A DNA stretch of 64,000 nucleotides from Antedon mediterranea. Its lineage: Eukaryota; Echinodermata; Crinoidea; Comatulida; Antedonidae. Of the stretch, positions 12,338 to 64,000 are shown piece after piece (position 1 is the first letter of the stretch; each line of letters starts with the position of its first letter). The notes under the pieces were generated by a model that saw only the letters and a list, made by a program, of their open reading frames with translations, was not told where the DNA came from and searched no databases. The DNA is taken from positions 22,440,501 to 22,504,500 of the forward strand of contig NC_092672.1 in assembly GCF_964355755.1 (NCBI RefSeq), read 5' to 3'. Position numbers and translations under genes: made by a program.

Positions 12338-12436
12338 GATGGCGATACAGCATTGCATGTGGGTGCATTTAGTGGTCATGTCGATGTCTGCCAAATGTTG
12401 GTTGACATGGCAGCAGCAGTGGACCAACAAAATAAT
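12338..12436 (+). CDS. Roco gene exon: ankyrin repeat
   Basis: A 99-bp, phase 0-0 exon between TTAAATAG and GTAAGT encodes exactly one 33-residue ankyrin repeat (DGDTALHVGAFSGHVDVC..). Earlier repeats are expected upstream, but none were recognised between 1 and 12337. Confidence 0.9.
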
Positions 12437-42400: not shown

Positions 42401-45400
42401 GTCAATTCACGCGATTGCCTTCGCGCACTCTTCTTCACACAAAATGTGTCGAGTCAAGGCTAATCGACAGCTAGGCAAGACATTAAACTAAGTAGTAATT
42501 CATTGGACATAGCCCAAAGAAAGCTTAGACCCACAAGAATAAAGAATGTTTATAATTTGTGTACTGTATTTTTTTAATTCTGCTATTAATTTATTATCAA
42601 ACAATGCATGTACTCAAAGGAACTTTAAAAATGCGCGTATATGAACACATGAGATGGGAAGATTAGACCCACGAGAATAACAAATGTATTTTAGTGTAAT
42701 GTTTATTGCTTAATTTTGCTGACTTATTACTCGGATTGTGTCATACCTATAACACACACACACACACACAGCTCTACTAGAATAGACATATTATGTTTAG
42801 AGACTAATAATTATGCCTAGGCCTAATAGTATTAATAGAAACTATAATTTTAACACGTAATTATTTAGTAATACATTATATTAAAAACACTATCATAAAC
42901 TAAAGACTGATTATTTCGACAGTCCACACAAAACAACAGAACAAGAACATTTAACTGATGAATTATTCATGTTTATTTTGTGACGTTTCATGAGGGGGTC
43001 CCCAACTTATGTACGAAAAAAAAAATCGCGTCCGTCACCCTGAGAAAAATATCATGGAAAATGGGTTTAGTGATATTAATGCATAAAATCGCACATATTA
43101 TTTCCAAGATATGGCCAATAGTAAAGTTATTGACCTTTGAAATATCTAGAATTTGCATAACTATTATGAAATATATTTATTTAGTCTGTCAAAATTTGAT
43201 TTTTTTAAATGGCCAGGGTTATTTTACCTATTAGTATTATTTAGTTTGGCTTATTAGTTTTGGTTTAGTATGTTCTTGCAAATTATGAAATTAAGCTGAG
43301 TTTTTTAAATTTTTTTAAAAGAGTAGCTGAGGGATTTATCAGAACTAATTATGCTTATAACTAGAATTGCTAATATTGTTATTTTAAATCACAAACACTT
43401 GATTGTCAGAATGGAAAGTCTGCATCTGATATCTATAATGAAAATGTGTGCGATAAATACGATGGTGAACAAAAGAAAACAGAAATACTTGCAATTTTGA
43501 GTGGTAAGTTAAAAAAACACATTGTGCCTCAAATAGAAGCATGAACGTATAATAATAAAATTAATGATCACTTTTTATCCTGTAGTATATGTAGTCAGTC
43601 CTATAATCAAACAAATAAAAAAATATGATTTATAATATAAAAAAAAAGTAGATTAATTCAAATAGCGGCTCATCTCAACTACTGTTAGTACAGGGTATGT
43701 TGAAACTCACAGCGTTAGGTTTGTTATCTAACACAAAGCGTGCGGTACTTCATGGCATGCCAATGTGTAATATGGTTTCAGTTGTGCATTTTATCCTGTC
43801 TTCAATTTTGTGTGCTACTAATTCTGTTATAAATATATATATGTTGGTCCCAAAGGTATTTTAAAAATATGTTTGGCCTTTATATCCTACATTATTTCCA
43901 ATCTGTAATTCTGCACTGAAAAGCTTCATATACACATTCATTTTACTTGTTTAGGTGGACCTTTACCTTACATCGAAATGACATCGTCAGGTATGAATAT
44001 TCTTCAATTTCAATGCCCCACAATAGGGGTATTGTTTCCAATAAAAAAGGGAATTAAAAAATTAATCTTGGTCTATGACAAATTAGCTATCTTTTATGTT
44101 CTATTTGTTATGGAGATTTTGGTATCCACAATATCTATAAAATAAACTACTTATAAAAATGATTTAAATATTAATTTACATTTAAGAAATAAAAAGGAGT
44201 TTAGCGTGATTGAACTATTATTTTATTTACAAATATTATAAAACCACTATAGACAAAGTCAACATTTCACAAAATTACATTTGGGTAATTTAGATCTAGA
44301 AATTGAGAAGGGTAGGTGGAATCAAATTAACAAAATACTAATATTTTAGGATTTATTAGAATATTTTAAAAACAGTATAATATATATATATTATTTTAAT
44401 TAGATATTACAGCCAAAGAATTAATATACATTGCTCATAACGCCTTTAATAAAAGGAAACTAATAGCAGCTAATCTTGGAATGACACAAGAAGATATAAA
44501 TTCATTTGAACTACCAGATAAAAGCATAGCTCAAAGGACTTTGGACATGTTGAACACATGGGCAGTTAAGGTTACTAAGAAGTCCATGCGTTCAGAACTT
44601 GTTGCAGCTCTCAGGAAAGCTGAGGAAAAAGATGTGGCTGATAAAATTGAAAGTAAGTAAATAAAACCGTAAGATAGCCTTCAGAATGACTGAACTCTCT
44701 AATTTATAAGGTTCTTAAAGGCTTTGTAACAATATTCTGTGTGTTTATAATAATAAATAAAAACACTTTTTAATATGCAGAAATGTCTAAGTCTAAATTT
44801 TGGTCGCATTTGTGAGCATCGGCTTATAAGCTTAAGTGTTGGCATATACCTTATTAGTACCATATATTTATCAAACCAATTATTGAATTTGATGAAAATC
44901 TATCATCTGTTTTTCGTGACGAATTGCTGAAGTATTTTATTCTATATACATTATACCTTCATCTTTGTACTCTGCTATTATCACCTTAATTTATTTAAGT
45001 AACGATTCAGGTATTCATAAGACAGTCTTAGTGCATATTAAACTGTTCAATTTATAAAGAGTATAATTGCTATCCTGTAGTATACAAACAAACAGGAAGT
45101 TATACAATAGTTATTGTACCTTTTGTTTTGTTTTTAAGATGTGCATGTTCCAGAGGAGATATTGGCACGAGGACCTGATGCGGTGAAAGCATTTCAAAAT
45201 GCACTTGAAGAAGGACAAACAGAGTTTAATCAAGGAAGAACTATTTTTGTAGGACTTGAGAATGTTGGAAAAACGTCTACTATCAATTCTCTTTTAAGAA
45301 AAGGGTAAGCAAACTTTATATCAACTATTACATTTAACCACTTAAACTTTTACATACAGTTGTTAACTGGATCAATTACAAGAATAACCCATACATTTTT

Positions 45401-48400
45401 TCTGAATAGTTTCAATTTATTTCACCATAAAATAATATCAAAATACATAGCAAATATTGATGAGAGTAACTATCAAAGCAAAGCTCGTATTCCAGTCACC
45501 CATACACATAGCTAGCCAATAGCTTAAATATCTTATTTTATTGGGACCCTTATAAGTAATCTAAACATAAATAATCTAAATATCACAATGTAAAAGAGTA
45601 AGAATATAGTTGATTAAAATGTACTATTATTAAAATTGTTGTATGATTAAAGTATTTGGCCCTTTATTGTTCTGGGTATGTTGAGGGTTTAAAACAAGAT
45701 TGTAATGCAACGTAAAAACAATGTCATTGTCTGTTTTATTATTAATGCAAACATTCTTTTATAATTATATAATGTCATTTTGTCAGATTTAATCCATTGC
45801 ATATAATAACAGATGCAATGGTTAAAACAACGGTGTGTACACCAGATGCCAGTAACAAAGAAATGTTGAAAGAAACAACGCAGGATATTAATTGTAAGAT
45901 TTACTTTATTCAGATACATGCTACAACCAAAATAGATGAAATATTTATATTTTTAAATTTATTTTTATAATTATTTAGGCAAATTGCCAAGGATAACCAT
46001 AAGCAAATTAATTCACTATCCTTCTTAAAGGTAGCAATCCTGTTCACAAGATAAACATACACAATATTATGCTCTACATAACAATAAACAAAGTCTTATT
46101 ACAATTCTTTGGGAGTGGAGTTGTAATTTGTCATTAGAAAAAATCCTGACATGGACATGGACACAGGACCCTTGAATTGGTAGCCAAGCATCATAACTAC
46201 CAAGCCACAACTTCACTCCAAATTTAAAATTCACCCCTGACTCATGCACTATCATGTCACAACTTGTTGTTGTTTTTTTTACCAAATAATTGTTGTTCTT
46301 ATAATTATCATGTCATTGTAAATCAATTTAAAAGACACTCTAGGTTTAATATTTGGGTGACAATTTGCGACTACTTCTTGCACACACTTTGATATTTCAT
46401 AAATGCATGGAGAAAACAACTACCATATAAACATACAAGGTGTTTAAATTCAATTTGAGGATAAATTAGTTTTTTAATTATTGCAACAACATCATAAAAA
46501 TAGTTTTAAAGTGTCTATGCTTTAAAAAAAAACAATGTAACTGTGTAAGAAATAAAATAATATATACATGATTTTATTAACATTTTTTAATTTAAAAGCT
46601 TTAGACATGTATCAGGATGCTGTCACTGATTTCACAGTTAAACAAATGTTGAAAAGTCCACGCCATAGAAAAGGATACATACCAAGAGCAGGAGCATCAA
46701 AGCAGGAAACAAAATCTGGTAAAAGATTTTAATTAAATTCAATTCAGTAATCTGCTGTAAAATAAATTTAAAAGTATAAATATAAAAGGCACAAAATACC
46801 AGTCAATATAAAATTGGTACAAAGGAGATTTTTAAAATAAATTTAATATAGAAGTGGATAAAAGAGAGGTTTATACAGCATTTTGCTGTGATTACTTCTG
46901 TCACATTTGAATTTAAATAGTGAATACAAAAGATACACAAATTGGATCAGGTTGGAATCGGCAACAAATGATTTATTACACTAAGCTTTGTTCTTGACAA
47001 GTTAATTTGATTATAAAGCATAAATGATGAATGCTAATACATTATGCTATTTATAACAAGATAGCATCACCTTTAATTATATCATCACATTTTTCAGAAA
47101 GTAGACATGAGGAAGAGAAAAACCCCACAGGAGCATCAACATCAAAACAGGAAGCCAACTCTGGTAAAACATCAACAAGTTCAAATCCAAAGCCAAGCCC
47201 ACAAAAAGAGGGTAAATATTTATTTTTAAATGTGCTTGATTGTGCTGTTCATATATATTAATAATATCAGAAATAAAGTGCTAAATATTGAAATGATTAA
47301 AGGGGTGGAAATTTAATCATAATCATCAGTGTCTGCTAATGAACATATTACCTTGTTATCTTGTTCTTATTATCAAGTTACTTTGACAGTTAATACTAGT
47401 ATTTGTATATTATATGACACTGCTGTGTAATATATTCAACTTGCAGTACAATGTGGTTAAATAAACTCAACATTAAACCTTTGATTGGAAAGGATAAGGT
47501 TTAGAATACTTAAATATTGCATTGGAAATACTTTTTCTTTTAACAAAAAAAGTTATAGTTGGTAATCGCATATGAGACCTGTTATCCTGCTCTATATACT
47601 CAGCCTGCCTCTATCTGTCTTTAAAATTAAGATTATGATTATGATATTGAATTAAACTGTTGTATTGTGTATTATTGTTTTATCATAACAGAACCAGTGT
47701 ATGAAGAAAAACTTGAGAGACCAGAAATTCCTAAATGGCTCAGGAACAAATTTGTACCCAAATTTCGTTTTGCAAGAGAAGGTGGTGACTCTAAAGTGGA
47801 TAGCAACAAGTTTGTTATGAATATCTTGGACTTTGGTGGTCAACCAATTTACCATGTGATACAACGGGTAAATTTTATTGGTGTATTTAATTTTTATTAA
47901 TAGAGATTAGTTTTGCCGTCAACATTCAATGTACATGCCTCCTTCTGAAGTTGTGAAAATTTGCTTTGTCTTTTGGCCTTGTTACAATATCAGCACTGAA
48001 ATCAAAAAGCTTGCTCACTTGATTTGAAGTTAAGAACCTTTAATCTTGCTCCGAAGTATTACAAAAATGTGGATCTAATATAGTACAATATGTCAGTATC
48101 AGATACAAAATACAATTATTATTATTATTACAATATTATAAATTATTTTATTCTTCATTTAATTTAATAAAGTCAACTCGGTCTTTAGTCCCTAATTACC
48201 AGAAACCAAAACCAGAATTGAGGTCAAAAGTTCCAAATTCGTTTTTACCTTTAAAAATACATTTGGAATATCAGAATTTCTGTAAACCCAGACAAATTAT
48301 GGCATCCGAAGGGTGTCCAGTTTTGGAAGATTTTAAGTAAAATAGTATTAATTGATGTAATATAATGTATTATTAGCAGAGAGGGATAGCAAAGAAACAA

Positions 48401-51400
48401 TGTAATATTAAACATTCTTTATTTATTAAACCAGTGAATAAGATTGTAAATGTTTCCAAGGTGAACATGCACTTTGTGAGGAAAACAAAAGTATCAAATA
48501 ATCAGTTGTGCCAGTATACTGACACATGTGTATAAACAGTTTTTAATATTGACTATTATGATTATGTTTACTAGATATTCATGGTATCTTATGCTGTTGT
48601 ATGTGTGGTATTCAACCTGAATGAAGGTCTTAATGCCCCAGCTAAAGTTCGTGATCCAACAACTGTAAGTAGATTTTACAAATTTCAAATGTTTATGTAA
48701 TTGTACATAAATAAAATGTTTCCTTCATGTTATCCTTTACCTTAACACAAACTGTGCAAATAGCAGATGCCTGATATATGATTGTTGTTAATTCCACTTC
48801 CATGATAGTGTTGTTAATAGCAGATGCCTGATATATGATTGTTGTTATTTCCACTTCCATGATAGTGTTGTTAATAGCAGATGCCTGATATATGATTGTT
48901 GTTAATTCCACTTCTATGATAGTGTTGTTAATAGCAGATGCCTGATATATGATTGTTGTTATTTCCACTTTCATGATAGTGTTGTTAATAGCAGATGCGT
49001 GATATATGATTGTTGTTATTTCCACTTCTATGATAGTGTTGTTAATAGCAGATGCCTGATATATGATTGTTGTTATTTCCACTTCTATGATAGTGTTGTT
49101 AATAGCAGATGCCTGATATATGATTGTTGTTAATTCCACTTCCATGATAGTGTTGTTAATAGCAGATGCCTGATATATGATTGTTGTTAATTCCACTTCC
49201 ATGATAGTGTTGTTAATAGCAGATGCCTGATATATGATTGTTGTTATTTCCACTTCTATGATAGTGTTGTTAATAGCAGATGCCTGATATATGATTGTTG
49301 TTAATTCCACTTCCATGATAGTGTTGTTAATAGCAGATGCCTGATATATGATTGTTTTTATTTCCACTTCCATGATAGTGTTGTTAATAGCAGATGCCTG
49401 ATAATGATATATGATTGTTGTTATTTTCACTTCCATGATAGTGTTGTTAATAGCAGATGCCTGATATATGATTGTTAATTCCACTTCCATGATAGTGTTG
49501 TTAATAGCAAATGCCTGATATATGATTGTTGTTAATTCCACTTCATGATAGTATTGTTAAAAGCAGATGCCTGATTTATGATTGTTGTTAATTCCACTTC
49601 CATGATAGTGTTGTTAATAATAATAGCAGATGCCTGATATATGATTGTTGTTAATTCCACTTCCATGATAGTGTTGTTAATAGCAGATGCCTGATATATG
49701 ATTGTTGTTAATTCTACTTCCATGATAGTGTTGTTAATAGCAGATGCCTGATATATGATTGTTGTTATTTCCACTTCCATGATAGTGTTGTTAATAGCAG
49801 ATGCCTGATATATGATTGTTGTTAATTCTACTTCCATGATAGTGTTGTTAATAGCAGATGCCTGATATATGATTGTTGTTATTTCCACTTCCATGATAGT
49901 GTTGTTAAAAGCAGATGCCTGATATATGATTGTTGTTAATTCCACTTCCATGATAGTGTTGTTAATAGCAGATGCCTGATATATGATTGTTGTTAATTCT
50001 ACTTCCATGATAGTGTTGTTAATAGCAGATGCCTGATATATGATTGTTGTTATTTCCACTTCCATGATAGTGTTGTTAATAGCAGATGCCTGATATATGA
50101 TTGTTGTTAATTCCACTTCTATGATAGTGTTGTTAATAGCAGATGCCTGATATATGATTGTTGTTAATTCCACTTCCATGATAGTGTTGTTAATAGCAGA
50201 TGCCTGATATATGATTGTTGTTATTTCCACTTCCATGATAGTGTTGTTTTTCTATTAATTTGTGCTGCTAATAATAATAGATAATTTGTCAAACTAGAAC
50301 TTTAAAAATTTTAAATGTAAATTTTGTTCATTTTTTTTTTATTTAGGGAAAAGTTTATGAACATCGAATGACAAATCTTGACTTCATACTGTTTTGGATT
50401 CGTTCTGTTTTTGTAAACGTAAGAAAAGGAAAAAATAACAAGATAATGCTGATTGGTACACATTATGAGAGCCTTGGTAAAACTGAACAAGAAAGACAAC
50501 AAAGGGTACATATATCATCGCATTTCCTTTTAAACAGTACAAAATTGTATATTGTCATTAATTCATTGGAAACAATATGTAGTTTCATCTCTAACATTGG
50601 CAATCATGTATGATTGTTTTATACGTCATGTCATGAGCATACTACTGTACTGTGCTGGCCTATGATTATTAACTGATTAACTTAACTTAATTTTTTTTTT
50701 CATTTCGATATAATAAAACAAATAAAAGGGTATACAAATATCAATGATTTAGCACACATTTTAAATTTGTTTTCTTATATTGGTATAATTATACAATGTA
50801 CACTAGGTAAGTAAAAGCGTAACAAACATAACTTAAACGAAACACTTTTTGCACTTTACAAAAGGGGTTTTGGTTGGCTAAGCACACTCTAAATCTTCCC
50901 TTGACATAAGTATAATTCAAATATGATGTTATTTATTTTAGGTAAAGGAAATAGAGAATATACTTTGGAAAGCCCTGGAAGGAAAACAATTTGAGGACAT
51001 GGTGTATCAAGGAGAGCTCTTTACCATTGAAAACAGTGTCTCATTTGAAAAGAGCGGTGCTTCTAAAATCATCCTCAAAATACAAAAATTAGTCCAGATG
51101 ATGATTCTTACTTTTCCAATTAAATGGCTGCAAGTAATGCAGGAAATACAACAGCTAAGAAAAGACAAACTGTATCTACCAACGTCTGAGGTTAGAAATA
51201 TATTTTTATTTCTTTCAGCTTGATCTCAATTATATATCTTTACAGTTTAGTGTAGGTAAAAATTGTTTGAAAACAATAACCAGTTACATTTGTTTAGAAT
51301 AAATACATTAAACCCTGTTTTTCTGTCAATTTTAGTTGAGGATAAAATAACTATCATTGTAACGATCATGGTCACCTGCATTTAAAAGTGTATAGATTAG

Positions 51401-54400
51401 GAAACAAGTTGGTTCATTGTTGGTAGAAATTTTCCCCATGAGGGTATAATGTTAAACTTGCTTTATTTGTCAATGTTTATTGACTGTTTATGACGATTGT
51501 CATCGGTAACAGAACGGTGTAATTTTATTTTTTTTAATTTTTATTTTATTTATTTTTTTATTTTAATTATTGTACATCCAACAGTGTAAACACCAATTAC
51601 AGGATTATATATATATATATATATAAGAACTATATAACAATTATAATCATATTTAAACATTAATAAAATAATTTAAAATTTCAAATTATTTAAAATTATC
51701 TAACCAACTTATGATAGACTTATGGTAGACAACATACCAAAATGCCATTGTAACATTGTTCAGAAATACAAAATGATTTAATATGTTGCAAATTTCAATT
51801 CTAACCCTTTCATGACAATGAAAAAAGATGTCCTTGTAGTAACTTTTAGTATTATTTCCAATATGCTGTTTAACAAACACAGTAGCACAAATTACAATGT
51901 TGGTTGAACTCTCAACTTTTAGAATTTAATTTTATTTAATTGGGATGTTTATTTGCCTTTAGATTAATGATTTACTTGCTCGTTGTAAGATAACTGACAG
52001 AAAACAGTTTCTTGAGTACTTGCACGACATCGGTGAGATTCTGTTCTACCCAGATGACAAGATCCTCAAAGAAAAAATTGTTATAGATTTGATGGGAGTA
52101 GTCGACAAGTTTAAAACAATCATCACAGTTATTGATCCCAAGCTTCAGGTTAGTAATATTATGCACTATACTTTTGTGAATAATCTGACATAAACATTGT
52201 GATAATGTTTTTATGTGATGAATTTAGCTTTAAAATGTAATGTCTACCACAAAGAGAACTTTTTGTCCTGGAGCCTAATATATCTACTGTCACCATAATG
52301 AAAGTTAATGAATTTTAAAATAGAATCAAATTTATTCAAATTTACACCTTGTTTAATTTTACTACTGTATATTCTAATACTTAAAAGCAAATATGCTTGT
52401 GCATTACAGTTGAACCCCTATTAAAGAGGACACCACATAATGTGGACCCAACAAAGTGTGTCCCTTTAATAGAGGATAGTTGTAGAACCCCTATTAAAGA
52501 GGACACCACATAATGTGGACCCAACAAAGTGTGATCCCTTTAATAGAGGTTAGTCGTAGTTAATAATAATAATAATAGCTTTATTGTTTCTCAAGAGATG
52601 TGCAACAACAAAAAATAAATAAATAAATCGTATAATTGTTTATTTCGGGAGAAGATATCAACAAATTAGTAATTCTTCGTACTATGGTTTCTGTTTTACA
52701 AACAAATCTTTCTTTCCACCAATCGCTAGAATACCTATTAGTTGCAATTGTGACATTTGACATAATCACCAGCTGGTCTATCTTTGGTTTCTGTTTTACA
52801 ATCTTTCTTTCCACCAATCGCTAGAATGCCTACTAGTTGCAATTGTGACATTTGACATAATCACCACCTGGTCTATCTTGTTCTGCTTATTTTCTCATCC
52901 GTATCTTGAATCTGAACTGAACTTGATTGTATCTCTTTTATATCCGAGGCACAGTCTGAATGAGATGTGCAACAAGTATATAATAAACATTAAAAAAATT
53001 AGACAGAAAAAACAAATTACAAAATATTTACATGATAAACCGCTCAAAAAGTTGAGATCTTCAACTATAAACCTTATATAGAAAAACGCAAATGGTTGAA
53101 GTAAACTGAGAAAGATTAAAAAACTAAGACAAATAGGCCATAAGCAGTAAATCGTATCGTTTCATCTCATTCCAGTGTTAGTAGGCTAGTCAATCTAGCA
53201 TTTTGAGTGAAACAAATTGCAAACAGAGATTTTTTTTTTTTAATGGTTCCATATGATAAGGTGATTATTTTTTGAGCATCACACCTCTGACACTCATCCC
53301 GAAGGTATGCAAATTAGCTTAAATATGCAAATTAGGGTGAAATTACAGGGTTACCATATCTTAAAAACTACTAATCATAGAGAGTTCATTTTTGCACAGT
53401 CTGGTTCAGAATATATATATTTATATTTGCTCTAATGAGACATTTTACATAAAAATGTCCGGAAGTACCAAATTTGGACCCTTGACCCCATTTCTCAATA
53501 TTTACATAAATATGTGATTAAAATGTCTGTAGAGACTTTATTTTGGACTCAATGACTTGGATATTGTTTTTCAATACCCACCATAGAACTGTATTATAAT
53601 TCCTAAAATCACAACTTCGTCACGCACCTCGAAAGTATGCAAATTAGTAGTACAAGTAATATTAAATATGCAAATTAGGGAGTGAAATTACAGCGTTGCC
53701 ATATCTCAAAAACCGCTAATGCTAGAGTGTTGATTTTTTCACTAAAGTATTTAAAATGTATATATTTATATTTGCTGTAATGAGACATTTTACAAAAAAA
53801 TTCCCGGAACTATGACATTTGACCCTCGACCCCATTTCTCAATATTGCAGTAATGAAAACTAAAATGTCTGTAGAGACTTTGTTTTGCCCTCAAATGACT
53901 CGGATACAGGTTTTTAATAGCCAACATAGGAATGTTTAGTAAATCTCAAAATCACACCTGTATCACTCACCTTCAAAGTATGCAAATTATTAGTACAAGT
54001 TACATGAAATATGCAAATTAGGGGGTGAAATTACAGGTTCCTATATGTATCGAAAACCGCTAAGGTAGAGAGTTGATTTTTTCAAAAACTTGTTCAGAAT
54101 GTACATATTTATATTTGCTCTAATGAAACATTTTACGAAAAAATGATCGGAAATACAACAATTGACCCTTGACCCTATTTATCCATGTTTGCATACATAA
54201 TGCAACTAAAATGTCTAGATAATTTTTTTGGACTCAAATGACTTGGATACAGTTTTTCTATCGCAGCATAGGACCTCTTTGTAATTCCCAAAATCACATC
54301 TTTGTCACATACCTTGAAAGTATGCAAATTATTAGTACAAGTTACATGAAATATGCAAATTAGGGGTGAAATTACAGTCTTCCCATATCTCGAAAACCAT

Positions 54401-60400: not shown

Positions 60401-63400
60401 CTTATAAGCTATACACTGCCAGTTTGATTAATCTTTATTTATCGGTCGTGGATCTAAATTTGTTTTAATTGTCAATAACTAATTATCTAACTCAATTTAA
60501 TTAATACACAGGGTTACATCAGGTGGTTAATATCAGTACCGAAAGTACGAACCAACTTTATATACCATCGAGTAAAAATTCTAGAAGTAACATGGATTTA
60601 CCAAATTTTGCCCTCACATACAGAATACGCAGATTTTAAATTTGAATATGTGTTTACAATCCACTTGACTACCGAAATAAATATAATAACACTTGGTCAA
60701 GTATTAATTTGTAAAGTTATTACTACGTAAAAATTGGTGCAGACCTAAAAAAAAGGCTATAATTGCAGAGCTATTGCTCAAAATTGACTGGATATTTTGT
60801 GGAGAACTTTTGATATAGAGTGGATAACATATTTATTTCACAATATCAACTTTCAAAATGTAGACCCTGAACGAAATTCATTTTCTAGGCCTTTTTTCAG
60901 CTACTGCTTATGGCCTAAAAATTAAGTTTGAGAAGGAATTGCATTATATATCTAGCATTCGTGTGTTCTGCCATTGTCAGAAATATTTTAAAATGTTTTT
61001 CAAAAATGTTACTTGCTAATTTATATTTATCATGGGTTAATTGAATTGGTGTAAATTTCAATTCATTATGGATTTTAAGATCATCAAAGAATAAGTGGTA
61101 TTTATATCTAGAGAGCTAGTAGAAAACAATTCCCAGAACATGGATAGATTATTATTGTTTAGTTCATTTTTAAGGTTCATGAGTATTGGTTGTCTTAAAT
61201 GCATGAGTTATTTTGCATTGAAATACGAAATAATATACAGTTTCCTTTTCATTACAATTACACATTAAACATATACCTGTATTTTTAGGTGACCATGCTT
61301 CTTTTCTACCTTCAAGTGGTAGTGAATTGGAGCTGAATTTTAGGCTTGAAGCATGGTAATACACTTATCTAATAGATATTTTTCTAATTTTGGAGAGGTT
61401 TTAGTGACCAGAAGAATAGTAATTACTTTGTTGCATTGACAAATTACACTTTGTGCTTTTATATTTTTTTAGCCATCTCTGAAACAGCTTTGGAGAAATT
61501 TAAATGGGGGCAAACTAGATGAAAGACTGTTGCAGCATATTTGGAAGGATGAGTCAGATGAGATGATTGACTTCTTTGTGTCTCTAATGCAAACCTTTGG
61601 ATTAATGTGTGAAAAAAAGAGTAAAAAGGTATTTACATTTTATTTAAAATTTTAGTTCAATTATTTGTTCATATATTCCATTTACTATTTAAGTTTCATT
61701 TTTGTTTCTATAGAATGTTGGACGAACGTTCTATGTTCTTTCACGCCTAAAGCCCCAACGTGATAATACAAAAGCTGTTAAATATGAAGAGAAGCGTGCT
61801 ATTTCTCTCTTTCATGACTTTGATGGCTACCTACCAGATGATCTCTTCCAACGTGTTGCAACTAAATTTATCGAGGAATTTCAAATGGAAGATGATGAGC
61901 CTAGATTATCTTACGAGCATGTAGAACTGAATATTAATGGCCATCATCTTGTCGTTTTAAACGTAGCTACCATCAACAATTGCCGTTTGTTCCAGGTAAA
62001 CTTAATAATGCAAGCATGAATTGAATGCCAGTAAAATCACAAGTATTATATTGGGGGATTGTTCTTATGTTAACAGATATTAAAATATACACTGTCAGTA
62101 ACTTTAAATTTACTTGGTTTATTGCCATTTCTGGAATGATATCAGTGGTAATCACGTTGGAATTGATTTGTTTTTTTGTAATTGCAGACAACAATTGTCA
62201 GAACGAAAATCATGAACACAGAATCAGGAAACAGCTCTCCTGCTAGCCCTTCTAAAGATGATGATCCACAACCTAGCATCTGTAAGAAGGTAAACTATAA
62301 GTACCAAATAAACTAAAATACTTATGCTACATTGAATTAGCACAAACTTTGAATTTCATTAGTTTAGGTTGTTACAGAAGTGTGTTGATTTTACAATGTT
62401 ATCTATGTCTAGTATAATTTACTTGCTTGATGATATTTGGTCAGTGTAAATTTATAAGCTCAGTGAATCTGGGTTGTTTATTGTGTAGTACAAGTAATTT
62501 CTTGATATTATTTAGCATACAGTATCTGTGTATCCGAGTTCAAATAATTTTTTTTTAAATGAATGAACAAGACAAGCCCAGTTTCCAGATTATACATGGT
62601 CTATGGATATAAGCTTGTTTATTCTTGTAAAGGCGTGTGTTAGATTTTGGACTATTGATTGTGAGTTCAAATCCAATGCTCGTCGCATTGCTTGTACCAG
62701 CTGCATTATGGGAGTATTTTTCCGTACGTGTTTGATCCAAAAATGACCAGGGTAATAATTTATACAGTGCTTAGAGGTTTCACAACATTAGGTGCTTTAT
62801 AATTATAAATCCAGGAAGGATAATATTATTATTATTCTCTTTAAGTCATTTTAAATGTAGTAAATGTGACAGGGACAAGCCAGATCAGTAGCCTGTCGCA
62901 AATATTTTATTTGGAGATAATATATCATTATGCAGCTAATTTTCTGTTTTATAATGGTAAAAAAATTATTGTAATCCGACTTTTAATTACAAAGTTATGG
63001 GAAATTTATAACATGTATGTGTTGGAACTCTCTGGATTATGTTCGGAGAAATGTGTGTTCAAAGTTTACCGACGCGCTGCTGGACCGTGGTGGCCTTCGC
63101 TGAACAGCGAGGCTGAATGAACGCCCGAACAACAGACAAGAGGACACAGAGAACACGGTTTTATTATTGTTCTAGTTATCAGATGTTAATAAAATTCCGG
63201 AATTATTTTGTTTTTATTTTACTCTTGTAACATGCAAAATCTCAGTAAAGTAATTATACACTGCTCTCGCGTTGTGTCCTGCTTCTTCCTCTCAACCACT
63301 GCACACGTGGGTGGATTTTTTAACATTGTGAGCATGCGCAGTCATGAGCTTTAAAGCCATGTAAGCACAATCACAGCGCCGGCTACGGCAGTCGTCGTTA

Positions 63401-64000
63401 AGGAAAATATTTTTGTTTCTATCACTAAAATTGGTTATCATTGGTTAGGATGAAGAACAACTGAAATCATTGTCCAATAGAAATACACCTGTTTAAATTA
63501 GCTTTATATTCATAGTAAACAAACCAGACTTCGCTTAGAAAATGGCGGTATACGAATACGAAGCTTTTGAAAAGACGATTCTACATTCGAAAAGTTTTCG
63601 ACATATTACAAAATCATAGCCTTACAAAATGTGAAAAAATAACAACACAGTATGATTATAGAATACATAAAGGTTAGATTTAATAGATACAATTTTTTTT
63701 TTTTTTTTTTTTTTTTTTTGTCAACATGATTTTGCCTATTCTATAGGCTGTATCTCAGTTTGGGGATTACCCACCAGCGACTGGTTTGACTTGTCTGTGC
63801 CACAAATTCATTTTATTGATATTATTTATAATATTCTATAACAATATTTATTATTCTTATTTTTTCTAGGTCCTTAATTTCCTTGAAGAAGAATTGCAAG
63901 TTTTAAGTCAGAATGGTGCACGTGGTGTTGAAGTAAAGATGTACATCCGTTGTGCATGTTCAAATAGTGAACGTACTCATATGCAGGTTGTTCGCAAATT
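12338..64000 (+). CDS. Roco-family protein gene (ANK - Death - Roc - COR), partial at both ends
   Basis: Nineteen exons with matching splice phases encode ankyrin repeats (exons 12338, 38935, 39946, 43410), a Death domain (44404), a Roc GTPase domain (45139-51190) and a COR domain (51963 onward). The Roc P-loop is GLENVGKTST (45252-45281), the switch II motif is DFGGQ (47829-47843), and the guanine-specificity site is THYE (50458-50469) where Roco proteins usually have THxD. In the family, COR drives dimerisation and Roc binds GTP; ankyrin and Death domains recruit partners. It may be cytosolic, since no signal peptide or membrane segment is visible. No kinase or LRR is seen here. DAPK1 has related parts in another order, with the Death domain last. 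The start codon and C-terminus are not in view. Confidence 0.88.
12437..13022. other. Start of a 26.5-kb intron; nothing identified
   Basis: AT-rich intronic sequence following the donor GTAAGT. No repeat or coding match was recognised in this first part. Confidence 0.5.
13023..13090 (-). repeat. Decayed hammerhead-like repeat
   Basis: On the - strand TGATGA is followed by a GGGC/GCCC stem with a 7-base loop, then AAAA and GCTCTGC. This resembles the hammerhead core (CUGAUGA, stem II, GAAA) widespread in retroelements of marine invertebrates, but the first C and the G of GAAA are changed, so it should be inactive. Confidence 0.4.
13231..13300 (-). repeat. tRNA-like sequence (Pro/Thr type), probably SINE head
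   Basis: The minus strand reads GCTCTGTGGTCTAGTGGTAT, then a perfect 5-bp anticodon stem CTCGC/GCGAG with loop CCTGTAA (anticodon TGT), then TTCGAATC. The acceptor stem pairs at five of seven positions and the T stem at only three of five. The body resembles tRNA-Pro, the anticodon would read as Thr. I judge it a SINE head or pseudogene, not a working tRNA. Confidence 0.6.
13301..14289. other. Intron; no feature recognised
   Basis: AT-rich DNA with no coding match. Homopolymer stretches and diverged unknown repeats only. Confidence 0.4.
14290..14610 (-). pseudogene. BEL/Pao integrase C-terminal fragment (DUF5641-like)
   Basis: The minus strand encodes FWHRWKKKYLQTLQP, then NMKVGDVEIVKDESLP, then after a frameshift GKVSDVYTSEDGLVRKVKL and a terminal LVLLMPTD. 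This is the C-terminal tail that follows the integrase in BEL/Pao polyproteins. One frameshift near 14455 and a stop make it a relic. It may derive from a family related to the element at 1-8741, whose own integrase end is outside the window. Confidence 0.75.
14990..15830 (-). pseudogene. Heavily decayed LINE reverse transcriptase fragment
   Basis: Translating the - strand in shifting frames gives VNTAFENN near 15790, then HYGILGPFLDWFKSYF near 15680, then FFADDTTLF near 15605. These are adjacent RT motifs of CR1/Jockey-type LINEs, including the catalytic ADD. The segment toward 14990 should correspond to the RT thumb and C-terminus but is too decayed to read. Many stops and deletions. Confidence 0.6.
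15831..17391. other. Intron; no gene seen
   Basis: AT-rich DNA. Short motifs such as AAAGGGGGATTCTGGGTTT near 16048 resemble an inverted motif near 29342 and may be ends of a small repeat family. GGCCTA-type words are frequent. Confidence 0.4.
17392..21065 (+). repeat. Complex tandem repeat block, CRE-rich, period about 1.05-1.13 kb
   Basis: The motif GTAGAAAGTTGATTA with its surroundings occurs near 18546 and 19604, with a diverged copy near 20735. A 190-bp opening module with the perfect hairpin ACTCGTCA-CTT-TGACGAGT occurs at 17405 and again at 19962. GTGGCCATACGATGACGTCA recurs near 18173 and 19219, with a variant near 20361. The second copy lacks about 400 bp (17585-17985 equivalent). 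The block is CpG-rich relative to its surroundings and has no coding frame. It ends near a short palindrome GGTTATCC..GGATAACC at 21049-21071. Confidence 0.75.
21118..21715 (+). repeat. Tandem dimer, unit about 304 bp
   Basis: ATTTTGTGCACGC followed by CTCTTCAACGTGTAA occurs at 21123 and 21427. The order of TTTAGACATTT, CCGCGTAGCGTAAGT, AACTTCGAAAC and TTCACATCAAT is preserved in both halves. Non-coding; related in style to the block just upstream. Confidence 0.75.
21716..22304 (+). other. Probable 5' UTR of the CR1-like LINE, plus unassigned sequence
   Basis: The sequence becomes less AT-rich from about 21820 and leads directly into the LINE reading frame at 22305. No second copy is available here to set the boundary. 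Confidence 0.35.
22305..23333 (+). pseudogene. CR1-like LINE ORF2 N-terminus: leader, 2A-like motif, endonuclease
   Basis: ATG 22305 opens a hydrophobic leader (MVSITIIYISHVLLSLFW), then a cysteine pair and DIHPNPGP at 22509-22532 (residues 69-76), then the AP endonuclease (MNARSLRNK near 22617, TESWL near 22699, GGGVLAAI near 22794, VGDFNLNW near 23026). The motif matches the ribosome-skipping 2A consensus D-V/I-E-x-N-P-G-P except His for Glu. CR1-type elements of echinoderms and other invertebrates are known to carry such N-terminal 2A sequences. The frame breaks near 23280. Confidence 0.8.
23282..24486 (+). pseudogene. CR1-like LINE reverse transcriptase, 3'-truncated
   Basis: Continues the LINE in another frame. 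It shows HSPWVTNDIK near 23472, NKSPGPDSVHPYIL near 23912, FKSGDKN with YRPISLTPI near 24064-24120, and VIFLDYAKAFDK near 24304 with the first catalytic Asp. The reading ends at SPVTSG and is followed by foreign sequence, so the FADD box is absent. Confidence 0.85.
24487..24701 (+). repeat. Unclassified repeat, left unit (direct copy at 29070)
   Basis: AATGCAATGAAAAATTT, TGACAGGAAGTGGCATTATT and GACACATACTAACGGACAAT appear in the same order at 29076-29210. LINE copy 2 is inserted between the two units. TGACCTTTGACC-type words recur inside. No coding potential. Confidence 0.7.
24952..27950 (-). pseudogene. LINE copy 2 ORF2 (endonuclease-RT), multiply broken
   Basis: The minus strand carries the endonuclease from 27950 to 27303, ending in a stop directly after ILGDFNQD. 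Later fragments cover the linker (27103-26744), pre-RT region (26594-26304), fingers (26350-26060) and palm to C-terminus (26121-24952). FADD, PQGSILGP and SKAFD are all retained in the last fragment. Compared with copy 1 the breaks are a TAA at about 27314 and frameshifts near 26750, 26330 and 26100. There is also a shortened segment near 26370 (GVESNR for GVDNLSNR). Confidence 0.88.
28158..28800 (-). pseudogene. LINE copy 2 ORF1, disrupted by a 182-bp deletion
   Basis: Starts at ATG 28800 (MGGGKPKGGQ) like copy 1. Near 28656 it jumps from CTAAGGAAA directly to ATGAAGAAAATGG, removing the segment equivalent to 2413-2594. The 182-bp loss is not a multiple of three, so the coiled-coil N-terminal part is out of frame with the RRM-like C-terminal part, which stays open from 28652 to 28158. 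Confidence 0.88.
28985..29210 (+). repeat. Unclassified repeat, right unit
   Basis: Direct partner of the unit at 24487-24701. Shared segments start at 29073 (TTTAATGCAATGAAAAATTT) and run to ACTTAAAATT near 29203. The portion 28985-29072 matches no second copy here. Confidence 0.65.
29211..29399. other. Intron; unassigned
   Basis: A short spacer between two repeats. No continuation of the truncated CR1-like RT was found here. Confidence 0.4.
29404..30492. mobile_element. Non-autonomous DNA element: 29-bp TIRs, TACT target duplication
   Basis: CGGCCGTTCCAAGGCAAAAC.. at 29404-29432 is inverted at 30464-30492 with one mismatch. TACT flanks both sides (29400-29403, 30493-30496). The 1089-bp interior has no transposase-like frame. 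At least six further copies of the terminal core (AAGGCAAAACAACGTA or its complement) lie inside, at 29584, 29604, 30158, 30188, 30217 and 30269. The pair at 29581-29625 forms a hairpin. Confidence 0.85.
30497..31737. other. Intron; AT-rich, no gene seen
   Basis: Long A/T-rich sequence. GGGCTGG-type words near 30925 and CCACCATGG near 31040 have no coding context. No recognisable element. Confidence 0.4.
31738..33150 (+). pseudogene. LINE reverse transcriptase with one premature TGA
   Basis: The frame from 31738 to 33150 is open except for a single TGA at 32545-32547. Motifs: KGPDGVSGRLI near 31816, WKVSEIIPVPK near 31931, GLFIDFSSAFN near 32187 (first Asp), GAPQGCCLSP near 32370 and YADDMVL near 32461. 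After the stop the same frame continues with a KYLGTHIDDQLSF block and a C-terminal helical part. The single change suggests a fairly recent loss. The N-terminal endonuclease is missing. Confidence 0.85.
33324..33354 (+). repeat. (GATTT)n 3' tail of LINE
   Basis: Six units of GATTT directly follow AACGAATAAA. Confidence 0.85.
33355..35619. other. Intron with LINE 3'-end debris
   Basis: Around 34625-34840 a T-rich stretch ends in TTGAATAAACAAATCAAATC, which looks like the 3' UTR and tail of another LINE. The rest has no recognised feature. Confidence 0.4.
35620..36012 (+). pseudogene. Decayed LINE C-terminal fragment
   Basis: The translation contains TRASHALHLPL near 35627, then SKLLNALPNDI near 35704, followed by a phenylalanine- and lysine-rich end and a short A-rich tail. 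This resembles the C-terminal block of CR1/Jockey LINEs (a basic patch, then a P-x-x-W-N-x-L-P-like motif). Several frame changes make the call tentative. Confidence 0.4.
36585..36603. repeat. Homopolymer C(19)
   Basis: Nineteen consecutive C in otherwise AT-rich DNA; a likely length-variable site. Confidence 0.9.
36604..38934. other. End of the 26.5-kb intron; no feature recognised
   Basis: AT-rich sequence with two loosely similar segments near 37000 and 37150 (diverged duplication). It ends with the acceptor TTTTTTTAG at 38934. Confidence 0.4.
38935..39033 (+). CDS. Roco gene exon: ankyrin repeat
   Basis: A 99-bp phase 0-0 exon encodes one 33-residue ankyrin repeat (DGNSPLLEAAANGQTACC.., ending NVNQQNK). 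Same length, phase and boundary position as the exon at 12338, so one exon equals one repeat. Donor GTAAGT. Confidence 0.92.
39034..39945. other. Intron
   Basis: Non-coding AT-rich intron between ankyrin exons, GT..AG. Confidence 0.6.
39946..40062 (+). CDS. Roco gene exon: third ankyrin-like repeat
   Basis: A 117-bp phase 0-0 exon (39 residues) begins NGDNALHIIARS and ends DICKKNK. The repeat is longer than 33 residues because of a charged insertion (LTYEEHKN) between its helices. Donor GTTAGT. Confidence 0.9.
40243..40292 (-). repeat. Hammerhead-like hairpin motif
   Basis: The minus strand reads CTGAGGA, then a perfect 7-bp stem CGATCAA/TTGATCG with a 6-base loop, then AAACGTC. It resembles the CUGANGA..stem II..GAAAC core seen in Penelope-like and related elements, but the stem borrows the G of GAAA, so strict pairing rules are not met. 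No surrounding element was recognised. Confidence 0.4.
42224..43034. mobile_element. DNA element with about 80-bp terminal inverted repeats
   Basis: Left arm 42229-42310 (key words TTCGTACATAAGTTGGGGAC, CCCCTCATGAAACGTCACAA, AACATGAATAATTCATCAG) is inverted almost perfectly at 42949-43028. The outer edges diverge around CACGCGATT and its complement. The interior (about 640 bp) has a weak direct duplication (TTAGACCCAC at 42526 and 42664) and an AC repeat, but no transposase frame. Confidence 0.8.
42752..42770. repeat. (AC)n microsatellite
   Basis: About nine AC units within the inverted-repeat element. Confidence 0.85.
43410..43503 (+). CDS. Roco gene exon: ankyrin C-cap
   Basis: 94 bp, phase 0 to 1. 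It starts NGKSASDIYNENV and ends TEILAILSG, a degenerate last ankyrin repeat with a helical cap. Donor GTAAGT. Confidence 0.88.
43955..43990 (+). CDS. Roco gene 36-bp linker exon
   Basis: A micro-exon, phase 1 to 1, between GTTTAG and GTATGA, encoding GGPLPYIEMTSS between the ankyrin cap and Death domain. Phase fits on both sides. Because its length is a multiple of three, skipping would keep the frame. Confidence 0.75.
44404..44652 (+). CDS. Roco gene exon: Death domain
   Basis: A single 249-bp exon (phase 1-1) encodes a whole Death-fold domain of about 83 residues. It shows LIAANLGMTQEDINSFEL, then the Trp of MLNTWAVKV, then LVAALRKAEEKDVADKIE, the classic six-helix signature with the helix 5 Trp and the C-terminal DVA-KI end. 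It would recruit other Death-domain proteins. Being one symmetric exon, the domain could be skipped or shuffled without changing the frame. Confidence 0.88.
45139..45304 (+). CDS. Roco gene exon: Roc start with P-loop
   Basis: Phase 1 to 2. It encodes a lead-in helix (AVKAFQNALEEGQ) and the first strand with the nucleotide-binding P-loop GLENVGKTST (45252-45281), then INSLLRKG. Donor GTAAGC. Confidence 0.92.
45787..45893 (+). CDS. Roco gene exon: Roc, after P-loop
   Basis: Phase 2 to 1. Encodes FNPLHIITDAMVKTTVCTPD and a helical acidic part. It covers the switch I neighbourhood; no unmistakable switch I Thr was assigned. Confidence 0.85.
46138..46235 (-). repeat. tRNA-derived SINE head
   Basis: Minus strand: GTTGTGGCTTGGTAG (A-box-like), anticodon-arm-like GGCTACCAATTC, then GGGTCCTGTGTCC (B-box-like). 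It lies in the intron before exon 46599. Confidence 0.5.
46599..46718 (+). CDS. Roco gene exon: basic insert in Roc
   Basis: Phase 1-1. Two acceptors six bases apart (AAAAG before 46599, CTTTAG before 46605) both preserve frame. Encodes LDMYQDAVTDFTVKQML, then a basic, probably disordered part (PRHRKGYIPRAG) ending ASKQETKSG. The donor context TCTG|GTAAAA reappears unspliced in the next exon. Confidence 0.8.
47098..47211 (+). CDS. Roco gene exon: low-complexity insert in Roc
   Basis: Phase 1-1, 114 bp. Encodes a polar Ser/Lys/Glu-rich segment (TGASTSKQEANSGKTSTSS) that is very likely disordered. The SKQE-x-x-SGK stretch repeats the end of the previous exon at DNA level. An internal TCTG|GTAAAA (47163/47164) is a potential alternative donor that would keep phase 1. 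Confidence 0.8.
47692..47867 (+). CDS. Roco gene exon: Roc switch II
   Basis: Phase 1 to 0. Encodes KWLRNKFVPKFRFA, then a beta strand and DFGGQPIYH (switch II, DxxG) at 47829. The DFGGQ..Y form is characteristic of Roc domains. Confidence 0.93.
48575..48664 (+). CDS. Roco gene exon: Roc strand 4
   Basis: Phase 0-0, 90 bp. Encodes a hydrophobic beta strand VVCVVFNLNEGL. The following intron holds the 57-bp minisatellite. Confidence 0.9.
48760..50247. repeat. 57-bp minisatellite, about 26 units, intronic
   Basis: The unit TAGCAGATGCCTGATATATG.. is repeated head to tail, with variants that differ mainly at GTTAATTCC versus GTTATTTCC and CTTCCATG versus CTTCTATG. A unit length divisible by three and free of stops on the - strand produces long spurious frames there (19-residue repeat). 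It lies inside the intron between exons 48575 and 50347. A few units have small indels (near 49400, 49480, 49550 and 49620). Confidence 0.9.
50347..50505 (+). CDS. Roco gene exon: Roc G4 region
   Basis: Phase 0-0. Encodes LDFILFWIRSVFVNVR and IMLIGTHYESL. THYE at 50458 occupies the guanine-specificity position, where most Roco proteins have THxD. Confidence 0.92.
50942..51190 (+). CDS. Roco gene exon: Roc end and Roc-COR linker
   Basis: Phase 0-0, 83 residues. The region around FTIENSVS fits the late Roc strand (G5 area). The helices LVQMMILTFPIKWLQVMQEI form the bridge to COR, with the P-x-x-W feature common there. Confidence 0.88.
51191..51962. other. Intron
   Basis: GT..AG intron with T-rich tract and a TA dinucleotide run (about 51605-51625). 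No other feature. Confidence 0.6.
51963..52148 (+). CDS. Roco gene exon: COR N-terminal part
   Basis: Phase 0-0, 62 residues. FLEYLHDIGEILFYPDD is the hallmark of the COR winged-helix region, followed by a strand IVIDLMGVVDKF that replaces the usual ILDPQWL-like motif. Confidence 0.92.
52416..52550. repeat. Tandem pair of 62-bp hairpin elements
   Basis: Each unit begins CCCCTATTAAAGAGGACACC and ends with the near complement TTTAATAGAGG (units 52416-52476 and 52489-52550), so each folds back on itself. It looks like a miniature inverted-repeat element duplicated head to tail. Confidence 0.75.
52686..52890 (+). repeat. Tandem duplication, unit about 103-107 bp
   Basis: GGTTTCTGTTTTACAA, TCTTTCTTTCCACCAATCGC and GTGACATTTGACATAATCAC occur twice in a row with few differences. 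Non-coding. Confidence 0.75.
53182..56434. mobile_element. Foldback-type element with octamer-rich internal repeats
   Basis: TAGGCTAGTCAATCTAGCA at 53182 is inverted at the right end (56434), and the arms remain complementary for hundreds of bases (for example GAGCATCACACCTCTG at 53274 and its complement near 56333). The left arm holds about five direct units of about 330 bp; the right arm holds about four inverted ones, with two small head-to-head units near 54680-55110. TAG flanks both ends. No transposase frame. A SINE fragment sits at 55213. Confidence 0.82.
55213..55285 (-). repeat. SINE 3' fragment inserted in foldback element
   Basis: Minus strand: TGTACAGCGCTTAGAGGTTT, then ACAACATTAGGTGCTATATA, then a TTATTATTATT tail. 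It matches the 3' part of the SINE at 62620-62838. Confidence 0.75.
56435..58239. other. Intron; no gene seen
   Basis: AT-rich sequence with GGCCTA words and no recognisable element. Confidence 0.4.
58240..58990 (-). pseudogene. LINE 3' fragment (RT thumb and C-terminus)
   Basis: Minus-strand reading in changing frames: VPINQITNTKSLGIFIDDRL near 58880, LNTLYSTLILSYLNYG near 58740, LLIQKRAVRIISGA near 58660, then PLTRTSLK and a GPKLWNSLP block near 58375. This order is the C-terminal part of a CR1/Jockey-type RT protein. Frameshifts near 58815 and 58520 show it is dead. Its family differs from the two copies of the first LINE. Confidence 0.78.
58991..60060. other. Intron; no gene seen
   Basis: Apart from the short tandem motif, nothing is recognised. 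Confidence 0.4.
59078..59158. repeat. Short tandem motif AAAATGGCC/TNC
   Basis: AAAATGGCCACC, AAAATGGCTGCT, AATATGACCACC and AAAATGGCCACA follow each other at 22-25-bp spacing. Confidence 0.6.
60061..60300 (+). repeat. tRNA-derived SINE
   Basis: The A-box region near 60071 (GAGCTGTATCATAGAGGTTGG) and B box GGTTCAATCC (60119-60128) are spaced as in a tRNA. The tail is CCTAATAAAGTTTATTTTGT. No proper acceptor stem, so it is a SINE rather than a tRNA gene. Confidence 0.6.
60950..61364 (-). pseudogene. Possible LINE C-terminal zinc-finger fragment
   Basis: The minus strand encodes RKEAWSPKNTGICLMCNCNE then ETVYYFVFQCKI, resembling the C-x-x-C..ET-x-x-x-F-x-x-x-C zinc-finger-like end of some LINE proteins. 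Only about 60 residues are open. Tentative. Confidence 0.4.
61473..61628 (+). CDS. Roco gene exon: COR middle
   Basis: Phase 0-0, 52 residues. LKQLWRNLNGGKLDERLLQHIW and FFVSLMQTFGLM match the COR helices that lead from the hinge to the second winged helix. It follows a 9.3-kb intron with the protein pattern continuous across it. Confidence 0.92.
61714..61995 (+). CDS. Roco gene exon: COR C-terminal half
   Basis: Phase 0-0, 94 residues. TFYVLSRLKP, then FDGYLPDDLFQRVATKFIEEF, then a beta strand HHLVVLNVATINNCRLFQ. The G-x-LP..LF..L-like block is typical of the second COR subdomain. Confidence 0.92.
62188..62289 (+). CDS. Roco gene exon: polar linker after COR strand
   Basis: Phase 0-0, 34 residues. 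A Ser/Pro/Asp-rich stretch (GNSSPASPSKDDDPQPS) is probably a disordered loop. Acceptor TTGCAG, donor GTAAAC. Confidence 0.82.
62620..62838 (+). repeat. tRNA-derived SINE with conserved 3' tail
   Basis: B box GAGTTCAAATCC at 62663-62674, a body with CAGCTGCATTATGGGAG, then the 3' tail CAGTGCTTAGAGGTTTCACA..GGTGCTTTATAA and TATTATTATTATTC. The tail matches the fragment at 55213 and resembles tails found in many invertebrate SINEs. Confidence 0.75.
63020..63325 (+). mobile_element. Possible solo LTR
   Basis: TGTTGGAAC opens and TTTAACA closes a segment with an internal AATAAA (63189) and a C/T-rich 3' part, like U3-R-U5 structure. TGTT/AACA ends fit LTRs, but no flanking duplication was found and an alternative end at 63232 exists. 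Low certainty. Confidence 0.35.
63693..63719. repeat. Homopolymer T(27)
   Basis: Twenty-seven consecutive T, 150 bp before the last exon in view; possibly the tail of a retroposed sequence. Confidence 0.85.
63870..64000 (+). CDS. Roco gene exon: COR end, truncated by window edge
   Basis: Starts after TTTTTCTAG in phase 0: VLNFLEEELQVLSQNGARGV, then the strand VKMYIRCACS. The frame is open to the right edge. A weak possible donor (CAG|GTTGTT near 63987) cannot be ruled out. Confidence 0.85.

What the first reader, a model, noticed from the sequence alone, without database searches (positions are those of the whole stretch)
12338..64000. Roco protein with ankyrin repeats and a Death domain placed before Roc-COR
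The exon chain gives ANK - Death - Roc - COR. The best-known Roco protein with both ankyrin and Death modules, DAPK1, has kinase first and Death last. Here the Death domain is a single symmetric exon (44404-44652) directly upstream of the GTPase, and no kinase is visible. This suggests a receptor-proximal scaffold in which nucleotide state of Roc-COR could control Death-domain clustering. The function is inference; the domain order is read from the sequence.
Basis: partly seen in the sequence, partly recalled or inferred. Interest (0 to 1): 0.7.

Follow-up and report, generated by a model that had tools for sequence, protein, structure and literature searches.

The report
Expanded Roco GTPases with death-fold domains
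A gene, probably of an animal, joins ankyrin repeats, a Death domain, a Roc-COR GTPase switch and, beyond the window, a death-effector-like domain; it is one of a large recently multiplied family that looks like an unusual set of cell-death or immune signalling switches.

Summary
The spliced protein matches Ank, Death, Roc and COR-A above Pfam cut-offs in that order. The Death exon (44404-44652) is a 249-base symmetric exon. Of its 22 genome matches (window included), the best 17 all lie 7-31 kb upstream of a COR exon on the same strand (shifted controls average 1.9; 0 of 20,000 reach 17); the other five do not.

The reading is incomplete. The gene runs past the window: the next phase-compatible exon is a roughly 173-aa module from a family whose first half is DED-related, followed by a degenerate Death exon. 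Relatives can carry one to three Death exons after COR, so Death before Roc is one state of a modular family (105 COR-B matches, 17 with the N-terminal Death). No convincing kinase or LRR was seen, but the 5' end was not found.

Best guess: a GTP-gated death-fold adaptor linking Death and DED partners. There is no expression or biochemical evidence. Roco proteins with death-fold domains are known (DAPK1, Trichoplax, Aplysia), so this is a new variant of a known kind; copy number and exon mosaicism are the interesting part.

The parts
12338..12436 (+). ANKa: ankyrin repeat exon, 99 bp, phase 0-0
   Evidence: Pfam Ank on spliced protein residues 1-33; AG/GT. Membership in the same gene is inferred: 26 kb intron to the next exon
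38935..39033 (+). ANKb: ankyrin repeat exon, 99 bp, phase 0-0
   Evidence: an equivalent exon is found in paralogs P6 and P7
39946..40062 (+). ANKc: degenerate ankyrin-like exon
   Evidence: phase-compatible; ankyrin nature by eye
43410..43503 (+). ANKd: ankyrin cap-like exon, start phase 0, leaves 1 base
   Evidence: homologous stretch in the C5 paralog; ankyrin nature by eye
43955..43990 (+). 36-bp linker exon, class 1-1
   Evidence: homologous stretch in the C5 paralog
44404..44652 (+). Death domain exon, 249 bp, class 1-1
   Evidence: Pfam Death 8.8e-10; splice positions kept in relatives; best 17 of 22 matches upstream of COR-B
45154..45304 (+). Roc exon 1 with P-loop GLENVGKTS
   Evidence: MMR_HSR1 0.0016 on this exon; aa-identical in P7, P6 and C5
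45787..45893 (+). Roc exon 2 (switch I side, by position)
46599..46718 (+). Roc insert exon 3
47098..47211 (+). Roc insert exon 4, resembles exon 3 by eye
47692..47867 (+). Roc exon with switch II DFGGQ
   Evidence: Pfam Roc stretch 431-470 of the spliced protein
48575..48664 (+). Roc exon, VVCVVFNL strand (an alternative donor at 48646 also keeps frame)
   Evidence: 74% aa identity to the C1 paralog
50347..50505 (+). Roc exon with G4-like GTHYE (motif name recalled)
50942..51190 (+). Roc/COR junction exon
51963..52148 (+). COR-A exon 1
   Evidence: Pfam COR-A 3.9e-5 alone, 3.8e-17 spliced
61473..61628 (+). COR-A exon 2
   Evidence: Pfam COR-A 2.1e-5 alone
61714..61995 (+). COR-B exon 1 (label inferred from position)
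   Evidence: 105 genome-wide matches
62188..62289 (+). COR-B linker exon (label inferred)
63870..64000 (+). COR-B exon (label inferred), continues 86 bp past the window end (exon end 64086). Outside the window: DED-related exon at 71098-71616, degenerate Death exon at about 72960-74100

Best explanation
The window holds most of one gene of a very large, recently duplicated and exon-shuffled Roco family in an unnamed eukaryote, probably an animal. Its domains are ankyrin repeats, Death, Roc, COR and, past the window, a DED-related module. Proposed mechanism: ankyrin repeats bind a partner or cue; the Roc-COR GTPase cycles between monomer and dimer with its bound nucleotide; that brings together the Death domain on one side and the DED-related module on the other, nucleating Death and DED complexes. 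It would work like a GTP-gated FADD-type bridge, for cell death or innate immune signalling. Shown here: the anatomy, the conserved splice frame, purifying selection on COR-B, and family expansion. Inferred: GTP binding, dimerisation, partners, and the immune or death role.
For: Phase-consistent open chain with Pfam matches in order. The best 17 of 22 Death-exon matches lie upstream of COR-B, on two chromosomes. 12 of those 17 also have a Death or DED-related match within 15 kb after COR-B (counted). DED (PF01335) is matched by 10 of 16 members of the downstream module scanned, at E up to 10, best 8.8e-6. COR-B pN/pS is 0.27 over 8 copies. P-loop and DxxG-type motifs are present in the spliced sequence (motif names recalled). 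Roco monomer-dimer cycling and DAPK1 regulation by Roc: passages of PMC6337361 and PMC6320773.
Against: No RNA, protein or phenotype. No start-codon exon found. The DED match is below Pfam's curated cut-off even in the best member (26.3 against 35.9 bits), and the window gene's own copy has no DED hit; single-sequence, profile and consensus searches of the PDB found nothing credible. The Death exon's pN/pS among 8 close copies is 1.14, indistinguishable from neutral (bootstrap 0.30). The last Death exon is decayed. The single-sequence Death model is low confidence (pLDDT 58.8). Five of the 17 show no death-fold match after COR-B.
Confidence: 0.5

Rival explanations
1. This copy is a decaying member of the cluster: intact-looking exons but no functional protein, with relatives carrying the function.
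For: C-terminal Death exon broken and swamped by an 81-bp tandem repeat; retrotransposon-like ORFs in an intron; Death pN/pS about 1; a duplicate at C3:23325170 with an identical COR-B exon has its DED-related copy split into two frames; no start exon found.
Against: Twenty exons open and spliceable; COR-B pN/pS 0.27 across class A partners; Roc exon 1 amino-acid-identical in P7, P6 and C5; deeper Death comparisons give dN/dS 0.54-0.63.
Confidence: 0.25
2. Two genes: an ankyrin-Death gene followed by a separate Roc-COR gene.
For: No RNA; long introns; a class-B relative has Roc-COR exons with no Death or P-loop exon in the 12.6 kb before its match to the window starts.
Against: Phase 1 is kept from the linker exon through Death into Roc exon 1; the best 17 Death-exon matches sit upstream of COR-B; the Death exon ends at a conserved in-frame donor, not a stop.
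Confidence: 0.07
3. A DAPK1 descendant that lost its kinase and moved its Death domain.
For: Both combine ankyrin, Roc-COR and Death, and DAPK1 also lacks LRR (passages of PMC6320773 and PMC6337361).
Against: No kinase in the spliced protein and no convincing kinase motif by regex in 94 kb (a regex can miss kinases split by introns); N-terminal Death was found for 17 of 105 COR-B matches only. A phylogeny against DAPK1 was not made.
Confidence: 0.12

Closest known systems
DAPK1 (third Roco group)
   Same: Ankyrin repeats, Roc-COR, Death, no LRR (passages of PMC6320773 and PMC6337361)
   Different: DAPK1 has an N-terminal kinase and Death last; here Death precedes Roc, no kinase was seen, and a DED-related module follows COR
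Trichoplax adhaerens Roco proteins
   Same: At least 17 ROCO genes, Roc-COR combined with CARD, Death, TPR, LRR (passages of PMC4104024, and PMC11378527)
   Different: The order of Death relative to Roc there could not be read (figure not held); 105 COR-B matches here
Aplysia proteins joining Roc-COR to TLR or MyD88-like modules
   Same: A mollusc MyD88-like protein (TIR and Death-like domains) that also holds Roc-COR, proposed as immune GTPase signalling (passages of PMC9334734)
   Different: TIR-based; no ankyrin or DED module is described in the passages seen
Brown algal ROCO expansion (9-47 genes)
   Same: Expanded Roco set with exon shuffling, proposed immune receptors (passages of PMC11378527, abstract included)
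   Different: LRR exons are shuffled there; here Death and DED-related exons vary around Roc-COR
FADD (recalled)
   Same: Joins a Death and a DED in one protein
   Different: No GTPase between them; DED first
DED-TRADD-N and Death-like expansions of Amphimedon, Branchiostoma, Crassostrea
   Same: Large lineage-specific families combining DED or Death-like domains with variable modules including ankyrin (section 10 of PMC8195603 read)
   Different: Section 10 names no Roc-COR partner in those expansions

Membership tests
Roco | Roc GTPase domain | tested here: met
   PF08477 28.6 bits against cut-off 27 on the spliced protein, best stretch 431-470; P-loop and DFGG present in the sequence
Roco | COR after Roc | tested here: met
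   PF16095 62.9 bits against 35.3, residues 596-732
Roco | GTP binding and hydrolysis | not testable with these tools
   needs protein
DAPK1 group | N-terminal CaM-regulated kinase | tested here: inconclusive
   no kinase in the spliced protein, one lone DFG-like regex match in 94 kb, but the 5' end of the gene was not found
DAPK1 group | C-terminal Death domain | tested here: inconclusive
   a Death-related exon follows but is degenerate in this copy; relatives have open Death matches after COR-B
DAPK1 group | Roc-COR phylogenetic placement | not tested
   no DAPK1 sequence was used
LRRK/MFHAS1-type Roco | LRR directly before Roc | tested here: not met
   the domain directly before Roc is Death; Pfam on the spliced protein finds no LRR at E up to 1; the unseen 5' end could still hold other domains
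Death domain | PF00531 above curated cut-off | tested here: met
   39 bits against 22.6
DED (downstream module) | PF01335 above curated cut-off | tested here: not met
   best member 26.3 bits against 35.9, E 8.8e-6; called related, not filed as a member

The most novel reading that the evidence does not exclude
This organism uses a Roc-COR GTPase in the place that NACHT or NB-ARC ATPases hold in NOD-like receptors: about a hundred copies, ankyrin sensor exons, and Death or DED-related output exons swapped as symmetric modules on either side of the switch, so that one protein bridges Death and DED pathways under GTP control.
Probability: 0.3. Interest if true: 0.78.

Novelty: new variant of a known kind. 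Interest (0 to 1): 0.52.

Why it matters
If the copies are expressed genes, this Roco repertoire would be larger than any count in the papers I saw (105 COR-B matches, against 9-47 genes in brown algae, which PMC11378527 calls more than in other organisms reported). It would also be a test bed for whether Roc-COR nucleotide state controls clustering of attached signalling domains, a question the reviews leave open for LRRK2 and DAPK1, because here the outputs are death-fold domains rather than a kinase.

Tried and rejected
A Roc or COR-A profile hit for this gene in the genome-wide scans: not listed; the domains are split over exons and only the best candidates were scored. Identifying the organism by COX1: no match. 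PDB homologues of the downstream module by single sequence, profile and consensus: nothing credible. A structure of the Death exon alone: pLDDT 58.8, so no fold search was run. Positive selection on the Death exon: pN/pS 1.14, bootstrap 0.30, not claimed. A splice choice for Roc exon 3 (46638) was dropped because the joined codon would be a stop; 46599 is supported by the C1 paralog. The tblastn step missed the Death exons of three C5 copies for a reason I did not find; one was then computed from known coordinates. Because of that, the negative was repeated with phmmer and positive controls: Roc exon 1 was found in P6, P7 and C5 and Death in C5, and neither in the 12.6 kb of the class-B relative. 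In one search the C1 entry for Death and the C5 entry for DED have undefined dS and are not used. Of 21 copies of the downstream module in hand (window gene plus L020-L039), 16 went into the alignment; L020, L021, L023, L027 and L033 were left out.

Literature: no paper describing the ANK-Death-Roc-COR order was seen in the listings (open-licence PMC only). Of ten papers opened I saw passages only, plus the whole of section 10 of PMC8195603; in PMC2575513 the terms had no occurrence. PMC12373286, PMC6321704 and PMC9573974 gave context, not a match.

Full report
What is there. The window is C3:22440501-22504500 (+) of an unnamed 354-Mb genome; the window is 32% GC. The species was not identified; that it is an animal is inferred from Death and DED-related domains. 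I took each conserved open stretch, listed AG and GT sites and phases, settled one doubtful junction with a diverged paralog, and joined the exons. With the next exon beyond the window the chain has 20 exons, AG/GT at each junction, matching phases, and 1107 codons without a stop. Splice sites were chosen to fit frame, so the openness alone is not independent evidence; the profile matches are. Pfam finds Ank, Death, Roc and COR-A in that order, all above cut-off, Roc only just (28.6 against 27 bits).

The Death exon. The domain match is clear (8.8e-10), although it starts at profile position 19 of 86. The exon is class 1-1. The acceptor is at the same place in 16 of 16 relatives checked and the donor in 15 of 16; for the sixteenth, C5_13918, only a translation was printed, which fits. 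A search with the exon gave 22 matches, 46 of 46 candidates scored. The best 17, the window copy included, all lie 6.7-31 kb upstream of a COR-B exon on the same strand, 13 on C3 and 4 on C5. Of the other five, one (C8:13483546) has no COR-B near it and four lie 1.7-2.7 kb downstream of a COR-B exon, so they are C-terminal Death exons. The cut at 17 follows the list and was not set beforehand. Circularly shifting the 17 positions within the two clusters gives a mean of 1.9 and a maximum of 15; none of 20,000 shifts reaches 17. The copies are related by duplication, so they are not 17 independent events; but the C5 set and a second C3 set differ from the window exon at about half their residues and keep the order.

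Beyond the window. The COR-B exon ends at 64086 in window numbering. About 7 kb further is a single exon (71098-71616, class 1-1, 173 aa). A search with it reported 150 matches in the genome, the cap, from 344 candidates. Pfam DED is matched by 10 of 16 members scanned, best E 8.8e-6, and in the members shown the match lies in the first half; this is below the curated cut-off, and the window gene's own copy does not match. The second half has no assignment. By eye the pair resembles the tandem DED of caspase-8 (recalled, not tested). Next comes a stretch homologous to the last Death exon of relatives. In this copy it has an in-frame stop and a frame change, and its end has been amplified into an 81-bp repeat, 10.6 copies within the 10 kb fetched.

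The family. COR-B of this gene has 105 matches at E up to 0.001, 127 of 127 candidates scored. Of the 105, 17 have the N-terminal Death exon. Counting from the map, with the remaining module matches checked, 31 have at least one Death match and 23 a DED-related match within 15 kb downstream on the same strand and before the next COR-B; one has both, so 53 have either. Twelve of the 17 with N-terminal Death also have one or the other downstream; five do not. A missing match does not show absence, because the Death list was limited to 150 of 179 candidates and the module list to 150 of 344, and not every COR-B match need be an intact gene.

Mosaic history. Against the C5 relative at C5:13460033, DNA identity is 68% over the Death exon region, 95% over Roc exon 1 just downstream, and 75-89% over the following stretches. 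Synonymous distance is 0.78 for Death and 0.06 for Roc exon 1 in the same pair of genes (short exons, so rough). A class-B relative at C3:22275071 matches the window from 45611 onward, just after the P-loop exon, and shows no P-loop motif and no ankyrin, Death or Roc exon 1 match in the 12.6 kb before that point, while the same searches find Roc exon 1 in P6, P7 and C5. Exon exchange or gene conversion is the likely cause; homogenisation limited to Roc is the alternative. Among eight close copies the Death exon has pN/pS 1.14 (not distinguishable from 1; 1.29 in its first part, 0.49 in its last) and COR-B 0.27; deeper Death comparisons give dN/dS 0.54-0.63. So COR-B is under clear constraint, and Death is either relaxed or diversifying in the recent copies.

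How it most likely works. Reviews describe Roco proteins as cycling between monomer and dimer, and DAPK1 as regulated by GTP on Roc (passages of PMC6337361 and PMC6320773). With Death on one flank and a DED-related module on the other, the simplest model is a switchable adaptor that gathers Death partners and DED partners together, as FADD does without a switch (FADD recalled). Ankyrin repeats would supply the input. Each of these functional steps is inference.

Comparison. The reviews name three Roco groups, with the Death domain in the DAPK1 group, last in the chain and with an N-terminal kinase. This gene is a Roco by Roc and COR, has no LRR before Roc, and does not show a kinase. It is not filed as DAPK1. 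Trichoplax has at least 17 Roco genes with CARD and Death domains among their partners, and Aplysia has MyD88-like proteins with Roc-COR, so Roco plus death-fold is known outside DAPK1; the order in Trichoplax was not visible to me. I saw no description of Death before Roc-COR in the listings of eight searches of open papers, which is weak evidence of absence.

Verdict. It is a new variant of a known kind, made more interesting by the size and modularity of the family than by the single domain order.

Noticed in passing
window 48759-50248: Intronic minisatellite, 57-bp unit, 26 copies, shared with the class-B relative at about 94-97% in most aligned registers.
   Followed up: partly
L001 9139-10000 (window numbering 73139-74000): 81-bp tandem repeat, at least 10.6 copies, that seems to have grown out of the end of a C-terminal Death exon.
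   Followed up: partly
window 3435-6347, 22227-24520, 31738-33147: Retrotransposon-like ORFs, judged by eye and by their similarity to each other and to repeats in P6 and P7; the last two lie inside the large ankyrin intron.
   Followed up: no
window 13230-13301 (-): tRNA-like sequence, 47.5 bits in Rfam; could be a tRNA gene or a tRNA-derived repeat.
   Followed up: no
G000 C11:4574278-4645866 and 17546311-17602884: Many Roc matches inside single open frames, often about 950-990 codons: a second, intron-poor Roc family.
   Followed up: no
G000 C4 30-36 Mb, C9 14-15 and 22-23 Mb, C7 6.8-7.2 Mb: The DED-related module occurs repeatedly where no COR-B match was found, so it is a large family of its own.
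   Followed up: partly
L060, L018 (C3:22254001-22274000): A class-B Roco relative apparently without the P-loop exon.
   Followed up: partly
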